Source: an archaeon (GTDB lineage Archaea; EX4484-52; GLR71). Taken from it: a stretch of DNA of 36,299 bases. The notes under the pieces were generated by a model that saw only the letters and a program-made list of their open reading frames with translations, had not been told where the DNA came from and searched no databases. Of the stretch, positions 174-11,175 are shown one piece after another. Where the stretch lies: positions 1-36,299 of the forward strand of contig WTCA01000003.1 of NCBI GenBank assembly GCA_013138805.1, in the 5' to 3' direction. The position numbers and the translations under genes are program-made. Within the stretch, counting starts at the first letter, position 1; the number at the start of each line of letters is the position of its first letter.

Positions 174-1466
174 TTATGGCGTCAATCTTTTCGGGTCTCT
201 TGGGAACAGGCATGCTTCCCTTATGTTTTCTCTAGCTGTCAGGAGCATTGTTATTCTCTCAAGGCCTATGGACCAGCCTGCATGAGGCGGTGCGCCGTAT
301 CTGAAAGTGTCAATATAGAACTTGAAGTTCTCAGGATCCATGCCTTTTGCCTTGAGGCGCTTTATCAGAAGTTCGGGTATATGGATACGCTGGGCTCCGG
401 ACAGGAGCTCTACGCCTCTGAACATGAGGTCAAAGGCGCGGCATATTTTTGGGTCTTTCTCGTCAGGCATTGAATAGAATGCTCTTATGTCTGTGGGCCA
501 TTCGGTTATGTAGAAAGGCTCATCCCAGCCGACAAGTTCGCAGATTTTTTTCTCTGCAGGAGTTGAGAGATCTTCGCCCCATTTTATTTTCATTCCTTCT
601 TTTTCCAGTATCTTGAGGACTTCTGTATATGTTATTTTTTTCAGGGGGAGCTTAGGTATCTTGAAATCTGTGCCGATAAGTTTTAGCTGGCTTTCGCATG
701 TCTTTTTTACATCGCTGAAGATGTTGAATGTGACTTCATCAAGGACATCCATCGCTTCAACGTCTGTGGCAAAGCCCATCTCAATGTCCATCTGGCGTGC
801 TTCTGAAAGATGCCTTACAGTATTTGATTTCTCAGCTCTCCAGACAGGAGTTATCATGCTGACTTTTTCCATACCACCCATGACTGCCATCTGCTTGTAT
901 ATCTGCGGGCTCTGGGCAAGGAATGCTTCCCTGTTGTAGTATGGAATCGGGAAAAGCTCTGCACCGCCTTCTGATGATGCAGCTATGACTCCTGGCGGTG
1001 TTATCTCTATGAATCCTTTGTCTTCAAGGGTTTTTCGGAAAGATCTTATTATCTGATTTTGGATAGTGAATATTGCTCTTACCTCAGGCCTTCTTAAATC
1101 AAGGAACCTGTTGTCAAGGCGGGTGTCAAGGTCTGAGTTCACCTTGCCTGTGGATTCAAGAGGCAATGGAGATTCTGATTCAGATATGATTGTTACTTTT
1201 GTAGGCTTTACTTCCATTCCGTTTGGTGCTCTGTCGTTCTTCTCTGCCTTGCCTTCTACTTCTATCACGAACTCTTTGCCTATGTCTTTTACTTCTTTCA
1301 CTATATTGTCGTCTGTCTCGCCGGTCTTTGCCGTGACCTGGACAAGGCCGTGCATGTCGCGGACTATAAGAAATATCAATTTGCCGAAGTCCCTTATCTC
1401 ATGAACCCAACCTGCGAGTTTTACATTGTCGCCAACTTTCAAGTCTTTGGAATATGTGCGTTCCAT
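174..1466 (-). CDS. aspS: Aspartyl-tRNA synthetase, archaeal non-discriminating type
   Basis: Class IIb synthetase charging tRNA-Asp, and probably tRNA-Asn, with aspartate in the cytoplasm. The N-terminal OB-fold anticodon-binding domain covers roughly residues 1-100, followed by the catalytic domain with AspRS signatures (FLDLRRPE, SPQIYKQ, and the motif 3 region SIGLERI close to the FPRDPKR end). Length 430 aa is normal for the archaeal enzyme. In the anticodon-binding domain the sequence has GWVH (His22) and RAPNG (Pro81). In archaeal AspRS, His and Pro at the equivalent sites mark the non-discriminating form, while Trp and Lys mark the discriminating form. The ORF track starts at a TTG; the ATG at 1466 is preferred because it gives the usual MERTY start and lies about 30 nt from a TATA-like box. 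It is divergent from the PurF-like gene. Confidence 0.95.
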   Translation of the reverse strand: MERTYSKDLKVGDNVKLAGWVHEIRDFGKLIFLIVRDMHGLVQVTAKTGETDDNIVKEVKDIGKEFVIEVEGKAEKNDRAPNGMEVKPTKVTIISESESPLPLESTGKVNSDLDTRLDNRFLDLRRPEVRAIFTIQNQIIRSFRKTLEDKGFIEITPPGVIAASSEGGAELFPIPYYNREAFLAQSPQIYKQMAVMGGMEKVSMITPVWRAEKSNTVRHLSEARQMDIEMGFATDVEAMDVLDEVTFNIFSDVKKTCESQLKLIGTDFKIPKLPLKKITYTEVLKILEKEGMKIKWGEDLSTPAEKKICELVGWDEPFYITEWPTDIRAFYSMPDEKDPKICRAFDLMFRGVELLSGAQRIHIPELLIKRLKAKGMDPENFKFYIDTFRYGAPPHAGWSIGLERITMLLTARENIREACLFPRDPKRLTP

Positions 1467-1496
1467 AACAATCAACTGATAATTGTTAAGAATAGG

Positions 1497-1505
1497 TTTT
1501 TAAAT
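1497..1505 (-). promoter_or_regulatory. TATA box of aspS
   Basis: On the minus strand the sequence reads CATTTAAAA about 31-39 nt ahead of the aspS ATG. This is the usual distance for an archaeal TATA box serving a very short leader. Confidence 0.45.
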
Positions 1506-1550
1506 GTTGGGGGTGTTTTTTGGGGAGATTGTGCAATCAAAAAAATAACA

Positions 1551-1559
1551 TTAAATATC
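1551..1559 (+). promoter_or_regulatory. TATA box of the PurF-like gene
   Basis: TTAAATATC is centred about 25 nt ahead of the ATG at 1579, which predicts a leaderless transcript. No Shine-Dalgarno sequence lies ahead of this ATG, which agrees. Confidence 0.5.
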
Positions 1560-1578
1560 TTTCTGTTGAAATATCATT

Positions 1579-3231
1579 ATGTGTGGCATTGGTGCGATTG
1601 TGCCAAAGACAAGATATTCTTCTTCCATATATAACATGCCGCAGACTGCAAAAGACATCCATCTTTCCCTTACTGAAAGGGGTACATCAAGCTGTGGTTT
1701 GACAGGTATTGAAAACGAGCCAAATAATCAGTTACTTAGCAGGATGAGATATGAAGGCCATTTTGCTGATGCAAAAGCAATGCAAAAATTCTATGAAGGT
1801 ATCAAAAAATTTCAAAAATTAGTATTCCAGACAAGATTCACGACAAACGGTGAGGACAGCCTGCTCAATGCACAACCTATAATCGTATATGCTGATGATA
1901 ATGATGAAAGTATAAATGTATTCAATGGATCTAATATACACCCACCTTATGCAAAAGACCGTTTTGAAGGAAACAATGTATTATGTCTTGCACATAATGG
2001 AGAGATACGAATCCCTAAAAAAGATAAGATATTTTCTGAGAGGGGATATTTTTTTGACGACTCTGAAAACCAGTCAGACAGTATGCTTCTTGCCTCATAC
2101 CTGTTGTCAGGCCTGATGGAAAATGAAGGTGATGTCGCAAAGACTATGAAAGATGCTAGAAATGATGTTAGAGGTACATATTCTATAATAGCTGATGCAA
2201 ATATTGAAGGATTTGAAGGTCTTTTTGCTTATCGATGCGGCAGGCGACCACTTGCAATCGCTAAGACTGATGATTTCTTTGCGCTTGCATCAGAGACAGG
2301 ACATCTTGTCAGTTCAGGAATAGAGGATGAATATGTAAAAACGATAGAATCTGGTGTGCTGCATACATTAATATATGAAAATGATTTAATCTCACACAAG
2401 ACAAAGAAAATCACAGACAAACCGAATCCATACTGTTTTTTTGAAGGACCTGTTTATCTTAAGAATCATTTAAGTGTCTGCGACCCTCTCCCTCCACAAA
2501 TGTTTGATCCAAGCTTTATTGAGGTCTTGAAAGGAAAACTTAAGATTGAAGATTATAACCCTTCTGAAGATGCTATCAATAAATCTCAAAAGAACCATCC
2601 GTGCATGACTGCAAGAGAGCTTATAGGGCAGTGGCTTTTTAGGCTTCGTGGTGATGAGATACCTGAAGCATATAAAACTATTTCAGGTGTTCCACGAAGC
2701 GGTCTTTCTGTTACACAAGGTTTTTCAATGGAATCTATATTACAAGGCAATCCTATACTGAACAGAGAACTTATCACTGCCATCGAATTACGGCGTGATT
2801 TTTTGAATGACCAGAAAGAAAGAGAAAAAACCAGGCCAAAAAAATTAGAATATAGAGATATGCCGGATTATCTTATATTAGGCGAAGACAGTGTTGTAAC
2901 CAGCAGAAACATTATTGATGCCATAGAGAACTGCTATGATAAGGATGCTGAAAAAATCATAGTCATTGTTGGATCCCCTCCTATAATAAAGGCATGTGAT
3001 AATGGCATAAACATGAAATATGGTCATCAATTCCCACAGAAACTATATCCTGATATGCCTGAACAATGGATAAATAACAGGGTTGTAAATAATTTAGATT
3101 TATTTGAGAAAGATGCTGCAAAATATCTTGGCATTGAAAAAGTAATCTATATGCCTCTCAAACCGATTGAGATGCTTCTAGGTCCTGCTTACTCTTATGG
3201 CTGTGTAGGCGGCGGTGGATGCAGCTGCTGA
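1579..3231 (+). CDS. Divergent glutamine amidotransferase/phosphoribosyltransferase, PurF-like
   Basis: Two-domain protein resembling amidophosphoribosyltransferase, which makes phosphoribosylamine from PRPP and glutamine. The N-terminal Ntn-hydrolase glutaminase has the nucleophile Cys2 (MCGIGAI, no propeptide), RGTSSCG at about 35, HNGE at 139-142 and SDS at 166-168. The C-terminal phosphoribosyltransferase half has a VPRSG motif near 371 and a PRPP loop EDSVVTSR near 436, where PurF normally has DDSIVRGT. Cysteines at 286 (CFFE), 473 (KACDNG) and the C-terminal cluster (542, 548, 550) fall where the Fe-S ligands of Bacillus-type PurF lie. At 550 aa it is longer than usual, and the middle diverges. 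No other purine gene is in the window, so it may be a paralogue with a changed substrate. Confidence 0.8.
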   Translation: MCGIGAIVPKTRYSSSIYNMPQTAKDIHLSLTERGTSSCGLTGIENEPNNQLLSRMRYEGHFADAKAMQKFYEGIKKFQKLVFQTRFTTNGEDSLLNAQPIIVYADDNDESINVFNGSNIHPPYAKDRFEGNNVLCLAHNGEIRIPKKDKIFSERGYFFDDSENQSDSMLLASYLLSGLMENEGDVAKTMKDARNDVRGTYSIIADANIEGFEGLFAYRCGRRPLAIAKTDDFFALASETGHLVSSGIEDEYVKTIESGVLHTLIYENDLISHKTKKITDKPNPYCFFEGPVYLKNHLSVCDPLPPQMFDPSFIEVLKGKLKIEDYNPSEDAINKSQKNHPCMTARELIGQWLFRLRGDEIPEAYKTISGVPRSGLSVTQGFSMESILQGNPILNRELITAIELRRDFLNDQKEREKTRPKKLEYRDMPDYLILGEDSVVTSRNIIDAIENCYDKDAEKIIVIVGSPPIIKACDNGINMKYGHQFPQKLYPDMPEQWINNRVVNNLDLFEKDAAKYLGIEKVIYMPLKPIEMLLGPAYSYGCVGGGGCSC

Positions 3232-3252
3232 AGTGATAAGTATGGAAAACAA

Positions 3253-3425
3253 CGGGCTTCAGAAAGCCCATAAAAATGCTAGGCATTTTTAGGGTCCCAA
3301 AAATCTATGATTTTTTAGGACCCGGGTATCTATATGACATTCAATCCTGCGGATTGAAGTCATGGTTTAATTGATGTTGTGTGATGGAGAAACAAAATAT
3401 ATAAAAAATACAACACAATTGAAAA
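3253..3425. repeat. Four-hairpin spacer bounded by a 12-bp direct repeat
   Basis: Four perfect or near-perfect hairpins follow one another: GGGCTT/AAGCCC (3254-3269), a 9-bp stem with 3-nt loop (3271-3291), a long two-part stem GGGTCC..GGACCC (3292-3323), and a bulged stem ATGAC-A-TTCAATC (3334-3363). The segment lies between two copies of TATGGAAAACAA (3241-3252 and 3426-3437), the second overlapping the NUDIX start codon. It could be a miniature mobile element, a structured RNA, or termination signals of the upstream gene. A TATA-like stretch (AAATATATAAAAAATAC, about 3396-3411) probably drives the NUDIX gene. Confidence 0.6.
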
Positions 3426-3426
3426 T

Positions 3427-4015
3427 ATGGAAAACAATCTACCTAAGCCTATCGGACCTGCTGAAGTGATGTATTCGGGAATTATCTTTGATATCATTCA
3501 TCAGAATATGCAGATAGGTAATAAGACAGAAACATATGAAGTGGCCAGGAGATCTCCAGGTGTACGCATAATGTTTGTTAATGACGATAAGATGCTGATA
3601 GCAAAAGAATACAGAGCCGAGATTAGCGGGTGGGATTACAGGCTTCCGGGAGGCAAGGTCTTTGATTCGCTCCGTGAATACAAAGAATATATTGATAGCG
3701 GAGATGAAATAATAGACTATGCATTGAAAGCTGTTGAGAACGAAGGCAGGGAAGAAGCCGGGCTTGTGGCTGATAATATAGAATATTTCTCTAAATCCGG
3801 TTCCGGTGGAAGGACAGTCAACTGGGACCTATATTATTTTGTTGTTGACAAGTTCCATGAAAATGAGGGCGGACAGATGCTTGAGCCGGGAGAGAACATC
3901 ACCTGCGATTGGATGGATTTTGAGGATGTCAGGGCTGTGCCTTGACGGGTCTTTTAAAGAGGACAGGACTGTTGCGAATGTGCTGAAGTTTATTCTGAAG
4001 GCACAGACAAAATAA
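3427..4015 (+). CDS. NUDIX hydrolase with a +1 frameshift near the 3' end
   Basis: NUDIX-family pyrophosphohydrolase, perhaps ADP-ribose or nucleotide-sugar pyrophosphatase-like. A GGK entry to the Nudix box (residues 75-77) and an EGREEAGL core (106-113) are separated by an insertion of about 15 residues, and the usual Arg of the box is Asn105. The first frame ends at TGA (3943-3945) after ..DFEDVRAVP. The +1 frame immediately continues with DGSFKEDRTVANVLKFILKAQTK to a TAA at 4013-4015, which looks like the normal C-terminal helix of such enzymes. With the shift the protein is 195 aa instead of 172. The shift site reads CCT TGA C, preceded by AGGG. It may be a real recoding site, a mutation, or a sequencing error. 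Confidence 0.8.
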
Positions 4016-4043: not shown

Positions 4044-5186
4044 ATGCATTTTCATCATCACATGCACAAGATTCATCTTCTGAAAAATGAGCTTTCCGAG
4101 GTATACATGAACCTTGCGCTGGAAAGTTTCGCCCTGTCACTCATATCAATATTTGTGCCTATATATATTCTTTCTGTCGGATATTCTTTTGACTACATGA
4201 TTCTTTTCTTCATGATATATTACGGATGCATCGGCATCTTTGCACCAGTCTCCGCTTCTCTTGCGAACAGGTTCGGGTTCAAGCACATCATTCTTTTCAG
4301 GACACCTCTCCTGATTGCGTTTCTTTTAGGGCTTCACAATATAGAGAACCTTATGTTCTCACCTCTTATCCTTGCAGCTTTTGGAGGATTCGGCTCGTCG
4401 CTCTACTGGATATCTATCAACTCAATCTTTGCAAAATACAGTGATAAGATACACAGAGGTACGCAGACAGGAAAGATGGTCTCCCTGCCGCAGCTTGCAG
4501 CTCTTGCCGGACCAACTTTAGGCGGCTTCATAAGCTTCATATACGGGTTCAAGATATTGTTCCTGGTAACAAGCGCAATTATCATAATATCTGTTGTTCC
4601 GCTATTCATGACAAAAGAGACAAAGCCGCATATAAATTTCTCTTTCAGGAAGATGATCAATATCAAGGCGAACCTGAAATATTCCGGATACTTCACTCTT
4701 GACGGTGCAAAATCGGTTGCTTCAGTCATATTCTGGCCGATTTTTATATACTGGGGGCTTTCGGGAAGCACGACAGGCACAGGGTTCGCGCAGACCCTGA
4801 CAGGCATCGGCGTCATCGCATTTACATATTATATAGGCAGGCAGACTGACAAGAAAGGCAAGACATCATTTATCAAGAAAGGTGCTGTGTTCCTGGCTCT
4901 TGTGTGGTTTGCGCGCATCTTTGCAAGCTCATCTTTTGAGTTCTTCATATACAGCCTTCTTGCCGGGTTCTTTACTGTGCTGATTGATGTGCCTTTTCTT
5001 GCCGCAAGCTTTGACCAGGCGAACAAGGAGAACCCTGATGAGTTTGTTGTCTTCCGCGACATCTTTATCGGTTTCGGAAGGTTCGTGTTTTTAGGTCTTA
5101 CTCTTCTTGTGTCTGATGCTGCCATGAAAGTACTTTTAGGTTTCGGTCTTGCCGGGGCTGCGAGTTTGCTATTTTTGTTTTTTTGA
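4044..5186 (+). CDS. Major facilitator superfamily transporter
   Basis: Integral membrane protein of 380 aa with about 11-12 hydrophobic segments and an MFS-like layout: a first half, a cytoplasmic loop near residue 200 (TKETKPH..KMINIKAN), and a second half. The GRQTDKKGK loop near 270 resembles the MFS loop between helices 8 and 9. The substrate cannot be told. The N-terminus is His-rich (MHFHHHMHKIH). The C-terminus stops at the last helix with no tail, and its last 18 bases overlap the convergent gene. A TATA-like AATAATATAAAC lies about 28 nt upstream of the ATG, overlapping the NUDIX stop, so it is probably transcribed separately and leaderless. Confidence 0.8.
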   Translation: MHFHHHMHKIHLLKNELSEVYMNLALESFALSLISIFVPIYILSVGYSFDYMILFFMIYYGCIGIFAPVSASLANRFGFKHIILFRTPLLIAFLLGLHNIENLMFSPLILAAFGGFGSSLYWISINSIFAKYSDKIHRGTQTGKMVSLPQLAALAGPTLGGFISFIYGFKILFLVTSAIIIISVVPLFMTKETKPHINFSFRKMINIKANLKYSGYFTLDGAKSVASVIFWPIFIYWGLSGSTTGTGFAQTLTGIGVIAFTYYIGRQTDKKGKTSFIKKGAVFLALVWFARIFASSSFEFFIYSLLAGFFTVLIDVPFLAASFDQANKENPDEFVVFRDIFIGFGRFVFLGLTLLVSDAAMKVLLGFGLAGAASLLFLFF

Positions 5187-5810: not shown

Positions 5811-6136
5811 AGAAATCAGTATGTTTATACTTAGCAGTCATATTTAAATTTATATGCATAAAATTGCTTTTTTTAAAAATATTAGGCATAAATATTGAAT
5901 AACCGAAAACTATATATACTACTTCTACCAATAAACAAATGTTCAATAAAAAGCCTTGAGAAAGGATAATCGATATAGTCGAATTCAGTCGAACCTTATC
6001 GAGACATTTATGAGAAAATTGATATGCGGGACAAACTCCTTCGGCACAGGTCCGTGAAAGATATTGTTTTGGTCCCCGACATCATCAACACACATAAAAT
6101 CAGAGAAAGGATTTAAATCAACCGCTATAATCTTTG
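5811..6136. other. Intergenic region of about 325 bp with a possible gene remnant
   Basis: The left part is AT-rich and holds the promoter of the minus-strand gene. The right part (from about 5979) is less AT-rich and carries an open frame without a stop from 5979 to a TAA at 6114-6116. Its translation (..VEPYRDIYEKIDMRDKLLRHRS..) looks like real protein, but the only ATG in frame (6024) would give just 30 residues. It may be the 3' remnant of a decayed gene. TTTAAATC at 6112-6119 is the likely TATA box of scpA. Confidence 0.4.
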
Positions 6137-6148
6137 ATGGTCATAAAT

Positions 6149-6877
6149 ATGAGAAATTCCGATGAGTCACAGGCATCTATTGAAACTGTTTCTTCTATAC
6201 CTGAAAAGCTCAACAATGACAACATAATAGACTGCCTGATTTCCGGACGATGGGAGGATGTTCTTCTGGGACTTACAAGCGACATGGACCCGTGGGATAT
6301 AGACCTTGTCGTGCTTGCAGAAAGGTTTATGGACTATGTCAGGAAGACCAAGGAAGGGGATCTCAGGATTCCTGCAAAAGTCATACTTACGGCCGCCATA
6401 CTTTACAGGATGAAGGTAGACTCAATCACTGCAGCTGAAGAGATACAGAAAGCAGAAATACTGGAAATTTCAGGAGACTCTTCAGAGAAAGATGATGTTG
6501 ACGCTTCCGGAATAAAGATACCGCCCATAAGCGTGCCTTTGCTCAGAAAGACACAGGGGAAGGTCAGCCTTGATGAGCTTATCAACGCACTTGACAGGGC
6601 GATGACTATCAAGAACAGGAGAGATGCGCGGGAAGTGTTCCAGATAGAGCTTAAGGGGGAAGATATAACCGAGTCTATCGAGGGGCTTTTTGAGAAGATA
6701 TGCGACAGGATATGTGTTGATAAGATTCTTAAGTTCTCAAGCTTTCTTGACAAGTCCGACAGGAAAGATATCTTGCGTAACTTTAATTCTTTACTTCATC
6801 TTTCCAACCAGGAAAGAGTTTTCATAGACCAGCCGGAAATGTTCGGTGAAATATATTTAACTGTTGCGCAACAATAG
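6149..6877 (+). CDS. scpA: Segregation and condensation protein A (kleisin ScpA)
   Basis: Kleisin subunit that bridges SMC heads and partners ScpB in chromosome condensation. The conserved N-terminal ScpA block is clear: a WEDVLLG helix followed by the family signature DPWDIDLVVLAERF, then a basic helix and a variable linker. A C-terminal winged-helix-like end follows (..LLHLSNQERVFIDQPEMFGEIYLT). About 242 aa is a usual length. The track uses a TTG at 6134; ATGs at 6137 and 6149 are in frame, and 6149 fits the TATA box at 6112-6119 best. The last codons lie inside the left copy of the long direct repeat, and scpB follows only after the inserted nuclease segment. Confidence 0.85.
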   Translation: MRNSDESQASIETVSSIPEKLNNDNIIDCLISGRWEDVLLGLTSDMDPWDIDLVVLAERFMDYVRKTKEGDLRIPAKVILTAAILYRMKVDSITAAEEIQKAEILEISGDSSEKDDVDASGIKIPPISVPLLRKTQGKVSLDELINALDRAMTIKNRRDAREVFQIELKGEDITESIEGLFEKICDRICVDKILKFSSFLDKSDRKDILRNFNSLLHLSNQERVFIDQPEMFGEIYLTVAQQ

Positions 6878-6907
6878 TTCTTGTTGTAAGGTGTTGTTTT
6901 TTGAATG
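6842..6907 (+). repeat. Left copy of ~65-bp direct repeat (scpA end / scpB start junction)
   Basis: The sequence matches 8193-8257 with one mismatch and one single-base indel. It contains the last codons and stop of scpA, the 12-bp palindrome TGTTGCGCAACA, an AAGGTG Shine-Dalgarno and a TTG start followed by unrelated sequence. It is interpreted as the left border of an insertion. Confidence 0.9.
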
Positions 6908-7088
6908 ATTCTGTCTCATCTTTTGCCTATGTGATCTGATATGTCTTTCCTGAAAAGGTAATCTTTATTGTTAACTTAAAATTGTTAAGAGAGGACGGGT
7001 TTGTTGTCAATCAGCCAAATTCTATTAAATAGACAGCACCAAAAGTGGTGACGCAATTATATGCATAGATGCTATTGAAAACAAGAGT

Positions 7089-8140
7089 ATGGATAATTCT
7101 GATAAAGCTGTCGAGACTAGATCAGATGGGTATAATCATCTGCTCAAAGATGTGAAATCTATACTTGATATGGGCATTTCTGGTGCGTATAAAGCAGTTG
7201 ACAATATCAAGGTGCAGACATACTGGCAGATAGGAGAAAGAGTTGTGAGGGAGGAATTGCAGCATAAAGATAGGGCTGATTATGGGCATAAAATAATAGA
7301 ACAATTGGCGGCAGACTTGTCATTTTCAAGACGGCTAATGTTTGAAATATTACAATTTTACAGAGAATATCCAATTGTGCATACACTGTGTGCACAATTA
7401 AGCTGGAGCCATTATAGGCTGTTAATTGCGATTGGAAGAAAAGAAGAACGTCTATTTTATGAGACTCAATCTGTCAGGAATATGTGGGCAGTCAGAGAGT
7501 TACAAAAACAAATACATAGCAATCTCTATAACAGGATGAAAAAACACAGAAAGCTGAGCATACCTATACCTATGCAGTCCAAGACCTATATGCCGGAAGA
7601 TGTCTTCAAGGATATATATCATTTTGATTTTCTTGGACTTGAGAAGGGGTATGATGAAACAGAACTTGAGAAAGGTCTGATATCTAATACAGAGAAACTG
7701 CTTCTTGAATTCGGTGCTGACTTTTCAGTTTCAGGAAGACAGAGGAAAGCTATCATTGATGGACAGGTACATGCTGTTGATATTGAACTATACCATAGAA
7801 GCATACCATGTATCGTTCTTGTTGAACTGAAAGTAGGAAGATTTAAAGGCGAGTATATTGGTCAAATGAATAAGTATTGTCAAAGCCATGATATCAAATG
7901 AATTGCTTTGCCATATACATCAAGGCATATTATTTGCCTTGAGTATATCTTAACTGGTATAAGGAGAATAAAAAGCATTCCTGGGAGAAAGATCCGATCG
8001 GGCTTATCATATGCAGGAATAAAGGGAAAGAAGAAGTTCATTATGCGCTTGGCGGCATAAGCAACAAAATCTTTGTTGCTGAATATAAGATGAAATTACC
8101 TTCAGGAGAAGACATCAGAAGAAGATTGAGTGATAATTAA
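7089..8140 (+). pseudogene. YhcG/DUF1016-family PDDEXK nuclease, interrupted near the C-terminus
   Basis: Protein of the YhcG (DUF1016) family: an N-terminal helical DUF1016_N part (residues ~15-155) and a C-terminal PDDEXK nuclease domain. The catalytic core is intact, with Asp231 (VDIELYHR) and the ExK motif Glu246-Leu-Lys248 (VELKVG). The frame stops at 7901 after Tyr263 plus seven foreign residues. The missing end is found downstream in another frame: LNWYKENKKHSWEKDPIGLI... through AEYKMKLPSGEDIRRR to a TAA at 8138-8140. Removing bases 7878-7948 restores a continuous 326-aa protein. A TATA-like ATTATATGC lies about 30 nt upstream of the ATG. The gene sits alone between scpA and scpB in a repeat-bounded insertion. 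It may make a truncated protein or be inactive. Confidence 0.85.
7878..7948. mobile_element. 71-nt hairpin insertion inside the YhcG-like gene
   Basis: Exact removal of these 71 nt rejoins the YhcG-like reading frame. The last 36 nt form a strong imperfect hairpin: ATATAC, one bulged A, TCAAGGCA, a 7-nt loop, TGCCTTGA, GTATAT (7913-7948), ending exactly at the inferred right border. The first part has a second inverted pair CAAAGC/GCTTTG (7881-7886 and 7905-7910). TAT occurs at both borders, so the exact ends are uncertain by up to 3 nt. No coding capacity. Whether it is mobile is inference from the insertion itself. Confidence 0.65.
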
Positions 8141-8192
8141 CTGCCGATTCATATTATTTGATATGAGTATAAAGATTTAGCTTTTTATCTAA

Positions 8193-8257
8193 TTCAGTGA
8201 AATATATTTAACTGTTGCGCAACAATAGTTCTGTTGTAAGGTGTTGTTTTTTGAATG
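8193..8257 (+). repeat. Right copy of ~65-bp direct repeat
   Basis: Near-identical to 6842-6907. This copy carries a duplicate of the scpA C-terminal codons and stop, the palindrome TGTTGCGCAACA, and the functional AAGGTG ribosome-binding site and TTG start of scpB. Its AAATATATTTAAC stretch (8200-8212) is a plausible TATA box, which would let scpB be transcribed independently of scpA after the insertion. Confidence 0.9.
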
Positions 8258-9072
8258 TTAAGAAAAGGCTTATAGAGGCAGCGCTTTTTGTCGCCGCAAA
8301 ACCTCTTTCTCTTGCAGACCTGTATCAGGTGCTGAAGATACCCAAGTCCAGGATAAAGAAAATCATCGATGAGATGAAAGGGCATTATGGCGAGCATGGA
8401 GTCAGGATTGTTGAGGCTGGCGGTCTTTATGAGATGAAGATAAATTCCAGCTTTGAGGAGCATGTCAGCCATCTTGCGCCGCACAAGGATTTCCCTAAGG
8501 CTGTCCTTCAGACGCTATCTCTTATCGCTTACAAGAACCCGGTGAAACAGAGCAATATTGTTTCTGTTCGCGGAAACAGAGCGTATGACCACTTAAAGGA
8601 GCTTGAGGCGAAAGGATTTATCCGGCGAGAGGAATCAGGGCATACCAATATTGTGCATATCACACGGAAGTTTCTTGACTATTTCGGGATTGAGAGCGCA
8701 GAGGAACTGAAAGAATATTTCAGTTCCACACCGATTGATATGATACTTAAGGATGTTGAGGTCAAGGAGAAAAAGGTTGTGAAAGAGGAGGCTGAAGTGG
8801 CTATTGATTCGCGCGATGTGTCTTTTTCTGATGACGGCGAGCTGCCAGAGAAGATGAGGGCTATTGTCGAGAAGAAGAAAGAAGAGATTCTCAAGAGACG
8901 GAAGAAGAAGCCTGTTGAGGATTCTGTTTCAGGTGAGGACAGACAGGATAAAAATATTTCTGAGGATGATGAAAAAACTGAGGAAGATTCTGCAGAAACT
9001 GATAAAGAAGATGATACTGTGAAAGATGATACTCCTAAAAAATTCAAGAGCAGTTTTGATGGTTTGATTTAA
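8251..9072 (+). CDS. scpB: Segregation and condensation protein B (ScpB)
   Basis: Winged-helix partner of ScpA in the SMC condensin complex. The N-terminal LIEAALFVAAKPLSLADL is the ScpB signature, and two winged-helix domains follow to about residue 165 (ALQTLSLIAYKNPVKQSNI.., RGNRAYDHLKELEAKG..). The last ~90 residues are a highly charged Asp/Glu/Lys tail absent from short bacterial ScpBs. The TTG at 8251 is chosen because AAGGTG lies 7 nt upstream and the family homology begins right there; the track's longer start at 8215 would translate the scpA end in the wrong frame. No operon partner lies directly ahead because of the insertion. Confidence 0.85.
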   Translation: MNVKKRLIEAALFVAAKPLSLADLYQVLKIPKSRIKKIIDEMKGHYGEHGVRIVEAGGLYEMKINSSFEEHVSHLAPHKDFPKAVLQTLSLIAYKNPVKQSNIVSVRGNRAYDHLKELEAKGFIRREESGHTNIVHITRKFLDYFGIESAEELKEYFSSTPIDMILKDVEVKEKKVVKEEAEVAIDSRDVSFSDDGELPEKMRAIVEKKKEEILKRRKKKPVEDSVSGEDRQDKNISEDDEKTEEDSAETDKEDDTVKDDTPKKFKSSFDGLI

Positions 9073-9145
9073 GGATAGTGTTACTTATTCTGCGCAACAT
9101 ATCATTTTATATACTTTCCCGTATTAGGTTGATAGTGGATATTTA

Positions 9146-9367: not shown

Positions 9368-9437
9368 ATTGTTTTTCATTATTCTACAGTATAAAATTTT
9401 TAAAAAATATATAAATATAGAACTATAGTTTTAATCT

Positions 9438-10112
9438 ATGAGCGAAGATATCAGTCCTTTGATTGTCCTTAACCTGAAGACTTATGAGAACGCTACGGGT
9501 AAAAAAGCAGCCATAATGGCAAATGATTTGTGGGAGGCAGCTGAAGTTTATGGTGCGGATCTTGTTGTCGCTGCACAGGCCACAGACATAAACGAGATAA
9601 AAAGACAAGTGCCTGAATTGACTGTCTATGCGCAGCATATTGATTCTTATGGATATGGTGCTCATACAGGACACATTACTGCAGAAGCTATAATCGGTGC
9701 AGGCGCTAGCGGAACACTTCTTAACCACAGCGAAAAAAAGATAGACCATGGCATTCTTGCAGAGACAATAAAAGTTGCACAAGACAGAGGCCTTGAGGTC
9801 ATAGCCTGTGCTGATTCGGTTTTAGAAGCTGAACAAATCGCAGATTTTGGCCCTAATTATATCGCTGTCGAACCTCCAGAACTTATCGGCGGAGATGTAT
9901 CTGTGACGACAAGACCACAACTTATTGTTGATTCAGTTGAAACTGTTCGGAAAGTAGACGAGGGAATAACTGTTCTTGTCGGCGCGGGAGTCAAGACATA
10001 TGAGGATGTGTCAAAAGCTATGGAACTTAAGACTGACGGCGTATTGCTTGCATCAGGAATTACAAAAGCAGAAGATCCGGTGGAAGCTTTTAAAAGGCTT
10101 ATCGGGCGTTAA
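9438..10112 (+). CDS. tpiA: Triosephosphate isomerase, archaeal type
   Basis: Interconverts dihydroxyacetone phosphate and glyceraldehyde 3-phosphate. Catalytic residues are visible: Lys14 (LNLKTY), His97 (LLNHSE) and Glu145 (VEPPELIG). The phosphate-binding loops VGAGVKT and GVLLASG are near the C-terminus. At 224 aa it has the short archaeal length, against about 250 in bacteria. A TATA-like AAATATATAAATATAG lies 18-36 nt ahead of the ATG. gap follows 43 bp downstream on the same strand, so the two probably form a lower-glycolysis/gluconeogenesis pair. Confidence 0.95.
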   Translation: MSEDISPLIVLNLKTYENATGKKAAIMANDLWEAAEVYGADLVVAAQATDINEIKRQVPELTVYAQHIDSYGYGAHTGHITAEAIIGAGASGTLLNHSEKKIDHGILAETIKVAQDRGLEVIACADSVLEAEQIADFGPNYIAVEPPELIGGDVSVTTRPQLIVDSVETVRKVDEGITVLVGAGVKTYEDVSKAMELKTDGVLLASGITKAEDPVEAFKRLIGR

Positions 10113-10155
10113 ATGATATTTTAGAAGAAAATCTTTTATTGAGAAGGTGATTTGG

Positions 10156-11175
10156 ATGGGATATGCAAAGATAGCTGTTAATGGATATGGGACTGTCGGC
10201 AGGCGCGTAGGAACTGCAGTAAATGCGCAGTACGACATGGAGATTGTCGGTGTTGTCAAGACGCGACCTACATTTGAAGCAATGACGGCTATTGACAAAG
10301 GTTTTGATCTTTATGTGCCGGATTCAGATATGATTGGTGCATTTGAGAAAGCAGGAATTGAAGTTGCAGGAACTCTGGATGATCTTCTGGATAAGGTTGA
10401 GATTGTCGTTGACTGCACGCCGAATAAAGTGGGTGCTTCTTATAAGTCACTTTATGTTGAAAAAGGTGTAAAAGCAATATGGCAGGGTGGTGAAGCTCAT
10501 GAGCTGGCAGAATTCAGTTTCAATGCTGAGGCGAATTATGATGATGCTATTGACAGGAATCTGGCAAGAGTTGTCAGCTGCAACACTACCGGGCTTACAA
10601 GAGCGCTTTATCCTCTTGAGCAGGAGTATGGTGTAGAAAAAGCCAGAGCTACTTTGATAAGAAGGGCAGCAGACCCTGGACAGAGCAATAAAGGACCGAT
10701 TAATGCTATTGTTCCTGCCCTTGAGATGCCAAGCCATCACGGGCCTGATGTCAATACAATCATGCCTAATATTGAGATTGCCACAACTGCCGTGAAAGTT
10801 CCGAGTACGCTTATGCATTTGCATGGGCTTACTGTTGCATTGAAAAATGATTTTGAGCCAGAAGATATTGTTGACCTTTATGAAGGAAGACCCAGGATAT
10901 ATCTTGTGTCTGGCGGCGATGGTGTGAGTGACACTGCAAAAATCATGGAGCTTTCAAAAGAACTGGGACGCAGCAGAAATGATATGTTTGAGAATGCGAT
11001 ATGGAAAGACAGTATCAGCAAGTACCAGGGAGAACTGTATTTATTCCAGGCGATACATCAGGAGTCTGACATTGTTCCTGAGAATGTGGATGCTATCCGT
11101 GCTATGTGCGGGCTTGAATCTGACGGCGCGAAATCTATTGCAATGACCAATAAGAAGATGGGTATTGGGAAATAG
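10156..11175 (+). CDS. gap: Glyceraldehyde-3-phosphate dehydrogenase, archaeal type II
   Basis: NAD(P)-dependent phosphorylating GAPDH of the archaeal class. The Rossmann motif NGYGTVGRRV (residues 9-18) and the catalytic Cys142 in SCNTTG are present, followed by the RRAADPGQSNKGP segment typical of archaeal enzymes and HLHGLTV further on. 339 aa is the normal length. The ATG at 10156 is chosen over the track's GTG at 10147 because AAGGTGAT sits about 5 nt upstream as a strong Shine-Dalgarno. This internal ribosome-binding site is what a second operon gene behind tpiA would need. Confidence 0.95.
   Translation: MGYAKIAVNGYGTVGRRVGTAVNAQYDMEIVGVVKTRPTFEAMTAIDKGFDLYVPDSDMIGAFEKAGIEVAGTLDDLLDKVEIVVDCTPNKVGASYKSLYVEKGVKAIWQGGEAHELAEFSFNAEANYDDAIDRNLARVVSCNTTGLTRALYPLEQEYGVEKARATLIRRAADPGQSNKGPINAIVPALEMPSHHGPDVNTIMPNIEIATTAVKVPSTLMHLHGLTVALKNDFEPEDIVDLYEGRPRIYLVSGGDGVSDTAKIMELSKELGRSRNDMFENAIWKDSISKYQGELYLFQAIHQESDIVPENVDAIRAMCGLESDGAKSIAMTNKKMGIGK

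What the first reader, a model, noticed from the sequence alone, without database searches (positions are those of the whole stretch)
6842..8257. Nuclease gene inserted between scpA and scpB, bounded by a ~65-bp repeat of the scpA/scpB junction
The sequences 6842-6907 and 8193-8257 match over ~65 bp with one mismatch and one indel. Each copy holds the scpA 3' end, the stop, a 12-bp palindrome TGTTGCGCAACA, and the scpB ribosome-binding site and TTG start. The simplest reading is that scpA and scpB were once adjacent and a 1.35-kb element carrying a YhcG/DUF1016 nuclease entered at the junction, duplicating it so both genes stay intact. A 65-bp duplication is too long for an ordinary transposon and fits site-specific or Campbell-type integration with attL/attR-like borders, the palindrome being a candidate core. 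No integrase is inside, so a trans-acting enzyme or homologous recombination would be needed.
Basis: partly seen in the sequence, partly recalled or inferred. Interest (0 to 1): 0.75.

Follow-up and report, generated by a model that had tools for sequence, protein, structure and literature searches.

The report
Foreign nuclease gene inserted between scpA/scpB
In one lineage of a tiny uncultured archaeon, a foreign candidate defence (YhcG/DUF1016 nuclease) gene landed between two chromosome-segregation genes and the insertion copied about 62 bp of the host's own junction, so both host genes stayed whole although the nuclease itself is now broken; similar duplications around a few related nucleases elsewhere hint at an undescribed way for single genes to move.

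Summary
Three same-genus genomes, and two same-family ones, have scpA and scpB adjacent with one junction, so the insertion is derived in this lineage. The insert looks foreign (GC3 0.33 versus 0.46-0.49). The palindrome is not a candidate core: it is scpA coding sequence and is not conserved in relatives. The two copies are 98% identical to each other but only 77-82% identical to congeneric junctions. The second copy was therefore probably made from the recipient's own DNA, which favours duplicative insertion (staggered break with fill-in, or template switching) over attL/attR or Campbell integration of a foreign circle. Around other DUF1016 genes, tight direct repeats occur in 7 of 92 loci versus 6 of 277 neighbouring ORFs (p = 0.02; p = 0.05 with plasmid loci added). 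In several the repeat is the end or start of the adjacent gene. That hints at recurrence but does not prove it. No dedicated integrase, excised circle or staggered cut was shown.

The parts
6134..6877 (+). scpA, intact; its 3' end and stop lie in repeat copy 1
   Evidence: Pfam SMC_ScpA E=9.3e-10; 67% identical scpA directly upstream of scpB in congeners
6846..6907 (.). repeat copy 1 (62 bp): scpA 3' end, stop, spacer, vestigial scpB RBS and TTG start
6862..6873 (.). 12-bp palindrome TGTTGCGCAACA, scpA coding sequence (TVAQQ); not conserved in relatives
6908..8196 (+). unique inserted segment (1,289 bp), lower G+C (0.36 against 0.41 for the window)
   Evidence: absent from scpA-scpB of relatives
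7040..7065 (+). promoter-like element of the nuclease (CAAAAGTGGTGACGCAATTATATGCA), weak match to the core of a promoter-like element found upstream of nuclease and SLFN genes in the genus
   Evidence: 7.8 bits, E=0.0049 over 1.5 kb
7089..7901 (+). 5' part of the DUF1016/YhcG nuclease gene (270 aa, ends early)
   Evidence: Pfam DUF1016_N E=2.8e-33, YhcG_C 2-99/157 E=1.4e-27; PADLOC PDC-S02
7878..7948 (.). 71-bp insertion that frame-shifts the nuclease; holds the hairpin CAAGGCA-TATTATT-TGCCTTG; the reading frame continues normally without it
7949..8140 (+). 3' remainder of the nuclease (YLNWYKENKK...RRLSDN*), out of frame with the 5' part
   Evidence: YhcG_C profile 93-153, E=1.5e-12
8197..8257 (.). 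repeat copy 2 (61 bp): vestigial scpA 3' end plus the scpB RBS and TTG start in use
8215..9072 (+). scpB, intact, start inside repeat copy 2
   Evidence: Pfam SMC_ScpB E=1.6e-37

Best explanation
A foreign ~1.29-kb segment carrying one DUF1016/YhcG nuclease gene (a candidate single-gene defence system) with its own promoter-like element was inserted recently, in this lineage only, between scpA and scpB. The insertion copied about 62 bp of the recipient's own junction, as in a target-site duplication: two opposed breaks or nicks about 62 nt apart, the foreign DNA joined in, both sides filled (or, equally, a replication template switch out and back). The long overlap spans scpA's last codons, its stop and scpB's RBS and start, so both host genes stayed intact and the event could survive selection. 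The nuclease was later (or already) broken by a 71-bp frame-shifting insertion. Shown: the repeat, the empty sites, the foreign composition, the broken nuclease, and that the second copy matches this species' junction. Inferred: the break-and-fill mechanism and the survival argument.
For: Single-copy empty sites in G001, G003 and G004, and adjacent scpA-scpB in G007 and G008. The copies match each other at 61 of 62 columns but congeneric junctions at only 77-82%, so the duplicate came from the recipient's own (or a conspecific) junction. GC3 0.33 for the nuclease against 0.49/0.46 for scpA/scpB. No flank similarity to other nuclease loci of the genus and no convincing terminal inverted repeats, so no defined transposon end. 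No integrase inside. Palindrome not conserved. Duplications of different length and sequence that are copies of the neighbouring gene flank DUF1016 genes elsewhere: L116 38 bp = hsdR 3' end, L166 45 bp = integrase 3' end, L158 155 bp = cytochrome gene 3' end, L125 ~44 bp holding an ATG start. That fits a mechanism that copies whatever the target is. Broken nuclease.
Against: No donor, circle or reaction intermediate seen. A 62-nt stagger is long for any well-known break. A site-specific enzyme whose attP came from the same species would leave the same picture. The target lies exactly across a gene junction, which could be specificity rather than selection. One event cannot fix a mechanism.
Confidence: 0.55

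Rival explanations
1. Site-specific integration: the insert is a small cassette or satellite with attL/attR borders, placed by a tyrosine recombinase acting in trans.
For: Long duplications of gene 3' ends (L116, L158, L166) resemble integrase targets that restore a gene end. Two XerA-like tyrosine recombinases are in the genome. DUF1016 overlaps a tyrosine recombinase gene on IncHI-type and Pseudomonas plasmids and follows one in viral contigs L178 and L179.
Against: attP would need 61/62 identity to a junction that differs by about 20% between congeners. Repeat sequences and lengths differ at every locus. No conserved core; the palindrome is not conserved. Every archaeal control genome also has a PF00589 gene, so the two here may be housekeeping XerA.
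Confidence: 0.25
2. Self-mobilising nuclease: the YhcG/DUF1016 protein makes opposed nicks tens of nt apart and its own gene is captured at the cut, a homing-like element with a long target duplication.
For: Tight direct repeats around DUF1016 ORFs in 7 of 92 loci versus 6 of 277 other ORFs in the same loci (p=0.02), and 9 of 86 versus 6 of 369 offset windows (p=0.0004). YhcG was grouped by others with archaeal Holliday-junction-resolvase-like PD-(D/E)XK nucleases (PMC1189080). Many copies in this genus.
Against: Most DUF1016 loci lack repeats (0 of 14 plasmid loci reach the cut-off; adding them gives p=0.05). E. coli yhcG has none and sits at one site. Two of the 7 are an integron-like attC array and a repeated intergenic element (L134, L143). 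No cleavage specificity is known.
Confidence: 0.1
3. Campbell-type homologous recombination of a circle that already carried the scpA/scpB junction from the same species.
For: Gives the same end structure; needs only host recombination.
Against: Needs a prior product carrying the junction next to the nuclease, so it only moves the question back; 62 bp is short for homologous recombination.
Confidence: 0.06
4. Assembly artefact or strain chimera in a metagenome-assembled genome.
For: MAG in 103 contigs; one lesion in the nuclease; reads not available.
Against: Both junctions are inside a 36-kb contig, more than 6 kb from its left end; the repeat is shorter than ordinary reads; the insert is homologous to, but distinct from, the other nucleases in the genome.
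Confidence: 0.04

Closest known systems
DUF1016/YhcG (PF17761 + PF06250) single-gene candidate defence nuclease, PADLOC PDC-S02
   Same: Domain order, length without the 71-bp insertion (326 aa) and family scores
   Different: This copy is frame-shifted and sits between housekeeping genes rather than in a restriction, BREX or mobile-element operon
Integrative elements that target gene 3' ends and restore them (tyrosine-recombinase att sites; general knowledge)
   Same: Long direct repeats holding a gene end; host genes stay intact
   Different: No recombinase in the insert; both copies are of host type; duplication spans the end of one gene and the start of the next; no conserved core
Transposon or IS target-site duplication, casposon included (general knowledge)
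   Same: Second copy made from the recipient's own target
   Different: 62 bp against the usual 2-15 bp; no transposase and no convincing terminal inverted repeats
Integron gene cassette (attC arrays), as at DUF1016 locus L134
   Same: Single gene between direct repeats
   Different: The repeat here is scpA/scpB coding and spacer DNA, present once in relatives; it is not attC

Membership tests
YhcG/DUF1016 nuclease (PDC-S02) | DUF1016_N followed by YhcG_C PDDEXK domain | tested here: met
   Pfam over cut-off for both; PDC-S02 models to E=1.5e-74; the C-terminal end matches in a second frame
YhcG/DUF1016 nuclease (PDC-S02) | Intact reading frame | tested here: not met
   71-bp frame-shifting insertion at 7878-7948; it is a disrupted family member
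YhcG/DUF1016 nuclease (PDC-S02) | Nuclease or anti-phage activity | not testable with these tools
   No experiment; no solved relative found by profile search of the PDB
Integrase-mediated element (attL/attR) | Recombinase gene within the element | tested here: not met
   Insert holds only the nuclease; candidates elsewhere in the genome
Integrase-mediated element (attL/attR) | Single-copy empty attB in relatives | tested here: met
   G001, G003, G004; equally expected for a target-site duplication
Integrase-mediated element (attL/attR) | Core or attP distinct from the target, shared by elements | tested here: not met
   Palindrome only at these two places in the genome and not conserved; repeats differ at each DUF1016 locus
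Transposon with target-site duplication | Short duplication plus terminal inverted repeats and transposase | tested here: not met
   62-bp duplication; best terminal inverted match is weak and internal (score 13); no transposase in the insert
Cassette between the genus promoter-like repeat (R1) | R1 element (78 positions) on both sides | tested here: not met
   No R1 match in the window with default filters; only a weak partial match in the nuclease promoter region

The most novel reading that the evidence does not exclude
YhcG/DUF1016 genes are one-gene mobile elements that move by a not yet described route leaving long (about 40-155 bp) duplications of the target, typically across a gene end or start so that the host gene is restored; the nuclease itself, or a partner recombinase, makes the widely spaced opposed nicks.
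Probability: 0.12. Interest if true: 0.85.

Novelty: new variant of a known kind. Interest (0 to 1): 0.45.

Why it matters
Defence genes turn up as single genes in the middle of operons and it is mostly unknown how they get there. This locus gives a clean before-and-after case (empty sites in the same genus) in which the entry copied 62 bp of the host's own junction and left both housekeeping genes usable. If the weak excess of similar duplications around DUF1016 genes holds up, it points to a general entry route for single defence genes, testable by survey and by a nicking assay.

Tried and rejected
Palindrome as core: rejected. Repeats around nuclease genes of congeners (L060 68 nt at 99%; L061 ~67 bp) first looked like the same event, but they are a promoter-like element (R1) found upstream of nuclease and SLFN/AlbA_2 genes and with many further matches in the genus: rejected as evidence. 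L064 (251 bp at 97%) is a mosaic SLFN N-terminus. L093 repeats on G000:C15 belong to a MITE-like hairpin element, one next to a duplicated map gene end. Other nucleases of the own genome show no flanking repeats. E. coli yhcG: one site, no repeats. A Proteus DUF1016 gene has no match in E. coli. IncHI plasmid loci: int-DUF1016 pairs without tight repeats. Empty sites for bacterial cases L166 and L116 were sought in viral contigs and plasmids; no close relatives, and the genome search could not be centred on them. Another archaeal phylum gave too few loci. 71-bp insertion as a repeated element in the genome: only a 22-bp weak match at 8150-8171; as a BHB intron: nothing clear by eye in the fold. 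Rfam: nothing in 6000-9100. Papers: no description of DUF1016 mobility with long duplications found.

Full report
OBSERVATION. The window is contig C43 of a 1.33-Mb assembly; one genome of the same genus (G005) holds a 3,032-bp contig with the nuclease match at the same coordinates as WTCB01000040, titled Candidatus Nanohaloarchaea archaeon GLR72, so the organism is a small archaeon. The repeat is 62 bp (6846-6907) and 61 bp (8197-8257), 61 matches in 62 columns, one T indel. It is the only repeat of this kind in the window. In 325 kb of the genome only copies linked to a MITE-like element reach similar length and identity.

ANATOMY. scpA (6134-6877) and scpB (8215-9072) are intact and match their Pfam families. 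The unique insert is 6908-8196 (1,289 bp). It holds one gene, DUF1016_N + YhcG_C (PADLOC PDC-S02), with a promoter-like TATATGC element at 7040-7065. The gene is broken: a 71-bp insertion at 7878-7948 shifts the frame, and the rest of the YhcG_C domain follows in another frame. With the 71 bp left out, the frame reads through 326 aa. The insert is poorer in G+C (0.36 against 0.41) and the nuclease has GC3 0.33 against 0.49 and 0.46 for scpA and scpB.

EMPTY SITES. G004 (L007), G003 (L008) and G001 (L009) of the same genus have scpA and scpB adjacent with one junction; so do G007 and G008 of the same family. G002 and G005 gave no scpB match, and the G006 contig ends inside scpB. The insertion is therefore derived in the window's lineage.

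MECHANISM. The two copies agree with each other at 98.4% but with the junctions of G004, G001 and G003 at only 82, 80 and 77%. The duplicate therefore carries this species' own junction. A circle arriving from elsewhere with a ready-made attP of 62 bp would be expected to differ. This favours a mechanism that copies the recipient's target: a staggered break of about 62 nt with fill-in, or a template switch during repair or replication. A conspecific att-type donor remains possible. The palindrome TGTTGCGCAACA encodes the scpA C-terminus (TVAQQ), occurs only at these two places in the genome and is not conserved in congeners (TGTTTCGCAACA, TGTAGCACAACA, TGTTGCTCAACA), so it is not a core. No convincing terminal inverted repeats and no shared flank with other nuclease loci were found. 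Two XerA-like tyrosine recombinases exist in the genome.

IS IT RECURRENT? Up to 80 DUF1016 loci from GTDB genomes and 17 from viral contigs were tested for tight direct repeats around the nuclease ORF: 7 of 92 ORFs against 6 of 277 other ORFs in the same loci (p = 0.02), and in an earlier form 9 of 86 against 6 of 369 offset windows. Adding 14 plasmid loci without tight repeats gives p = 0.05. Thresholds were chosen while exploring, so these values are indicative only. In several hits the repeat is a piece of the neighbouring gene: L116, 38 bp at the 3' end of a type I restriction R subunit gene; L166, 45 bp at the 3' end of a tyrosine-integrase gene; L158, 155 bp at the 3' end of a cytochrome gene; L105, 73 bp between tandem DUF1016 genes; L107, 45 bp intergenic. 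L125 has a ~44-bp repeat holding an ATG start (the downstream copy lies in a short frame that was not annotated) and was outside the tight criterion. L134 is an integron-like attC array and L143 a repeated intergenic element, so they are not evidence. In the window's own order no other nuclease shows such a duplication; the repeats around congeneric nucleases are a promoter-like element widespread in the genus.

ASSOCIATED FACTS. On IncHI-type and Pseudomonas plasmids a DUF1016 gene overlaps a tyrosine recombinase gene, so a link between this family and site-specific recombination exists. Earlier work groups YhcG with archaeal Holliday-junction-resolvase-like nucleases (PMC1189080) and notes DUF1016 on mobile elements (PMC4316617).

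VERDICT. Observation confirmed; interpretation partly supported. Adjacency, insertion and duplication are right. The palindrome core is wrong, Campbell/att integration is disfavoured, and the broken nuclease was missed. The most novel reading, a nuclease family that moves as a single gene and leaves long target duplications, is not excluded but is supported only by a weak statistical excess.

Noticed in passing
L060:3372-3447 and 4553-4626; L061:1902-1978, 3076-3148, 4528-4603 (-); L059, L062, L064, L065: A ~75-bp element (CCAAAAGTCACCCACAAAGGTGTTTACCAAYYTATATGC...CCAATACANTATCAAC) with a TATA-like core lies upstream of nuclease and SLFN/AlbA_2 genes; strong to weak matches in 5 of 7 genomes of the genus. 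Looks like a shared promoter or operator.
   Followed up: partly
L059 (G006:C106) 955-3725, - strand: Three DUF1016 genes in tandem, period ~1,080 bp, 72-84% identical.
   Followed up: no
L202, L203, L206, L201 (plasmids): Tyrosine recombinase gene overlapping a DUF1016 gene by 4 bp, shared among plasmids of Enterobacterales, Pseudomonas and Hydrogenophaga with a common left boundary.
   Followed up: partly
L093 (G000:C15) 9383-10744: MITE-like hairpin element (CTGGCTTCAGAAAGCCAG...GGGTGGCAAGCTTA) in several copies; one lies between two ~50-bp copies of the 3' end of a methionine-aminopeptidase-like gene.
   Followed up: partly
window 7878-7948 and 8150-8171: The 71-bp insertion in the nuclease has a 7-bp-stem hairpin and shares a 22-bp word (86%) with the nuclease's 3' flank; otherwise unique in the genome.
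   Followed up: partly
L003 (G000:C25) 1434-1541: DUF1016 gene remnant upstream of what reads as a grpE-dnaK pair; the genome has five nuclease matches in all.
   Followed up: no
L134:2506-2630 and 3760-3884: DUF1016 gene between two 125-bp attC-like sites (AACAGCGG...CGTTGGC) in a Chitinophagales genome: an integron-type cassette.
   Followed up: no
L198 (Glaesserella plasmid) 910-954 and 2080-2120: DUF1016 gene flanked by terminator-like repeats with GCCGTCTGAA, the neisserial DNA-uptake word, suggesting transfer by transformation.
   Followed up: no
L139:5008-8399: Array of genes after a DUF1016 gene whose starts repeat the same N-terminus (MEQEPILNAHNKEEYPPMHTAG).
   Followed up: no
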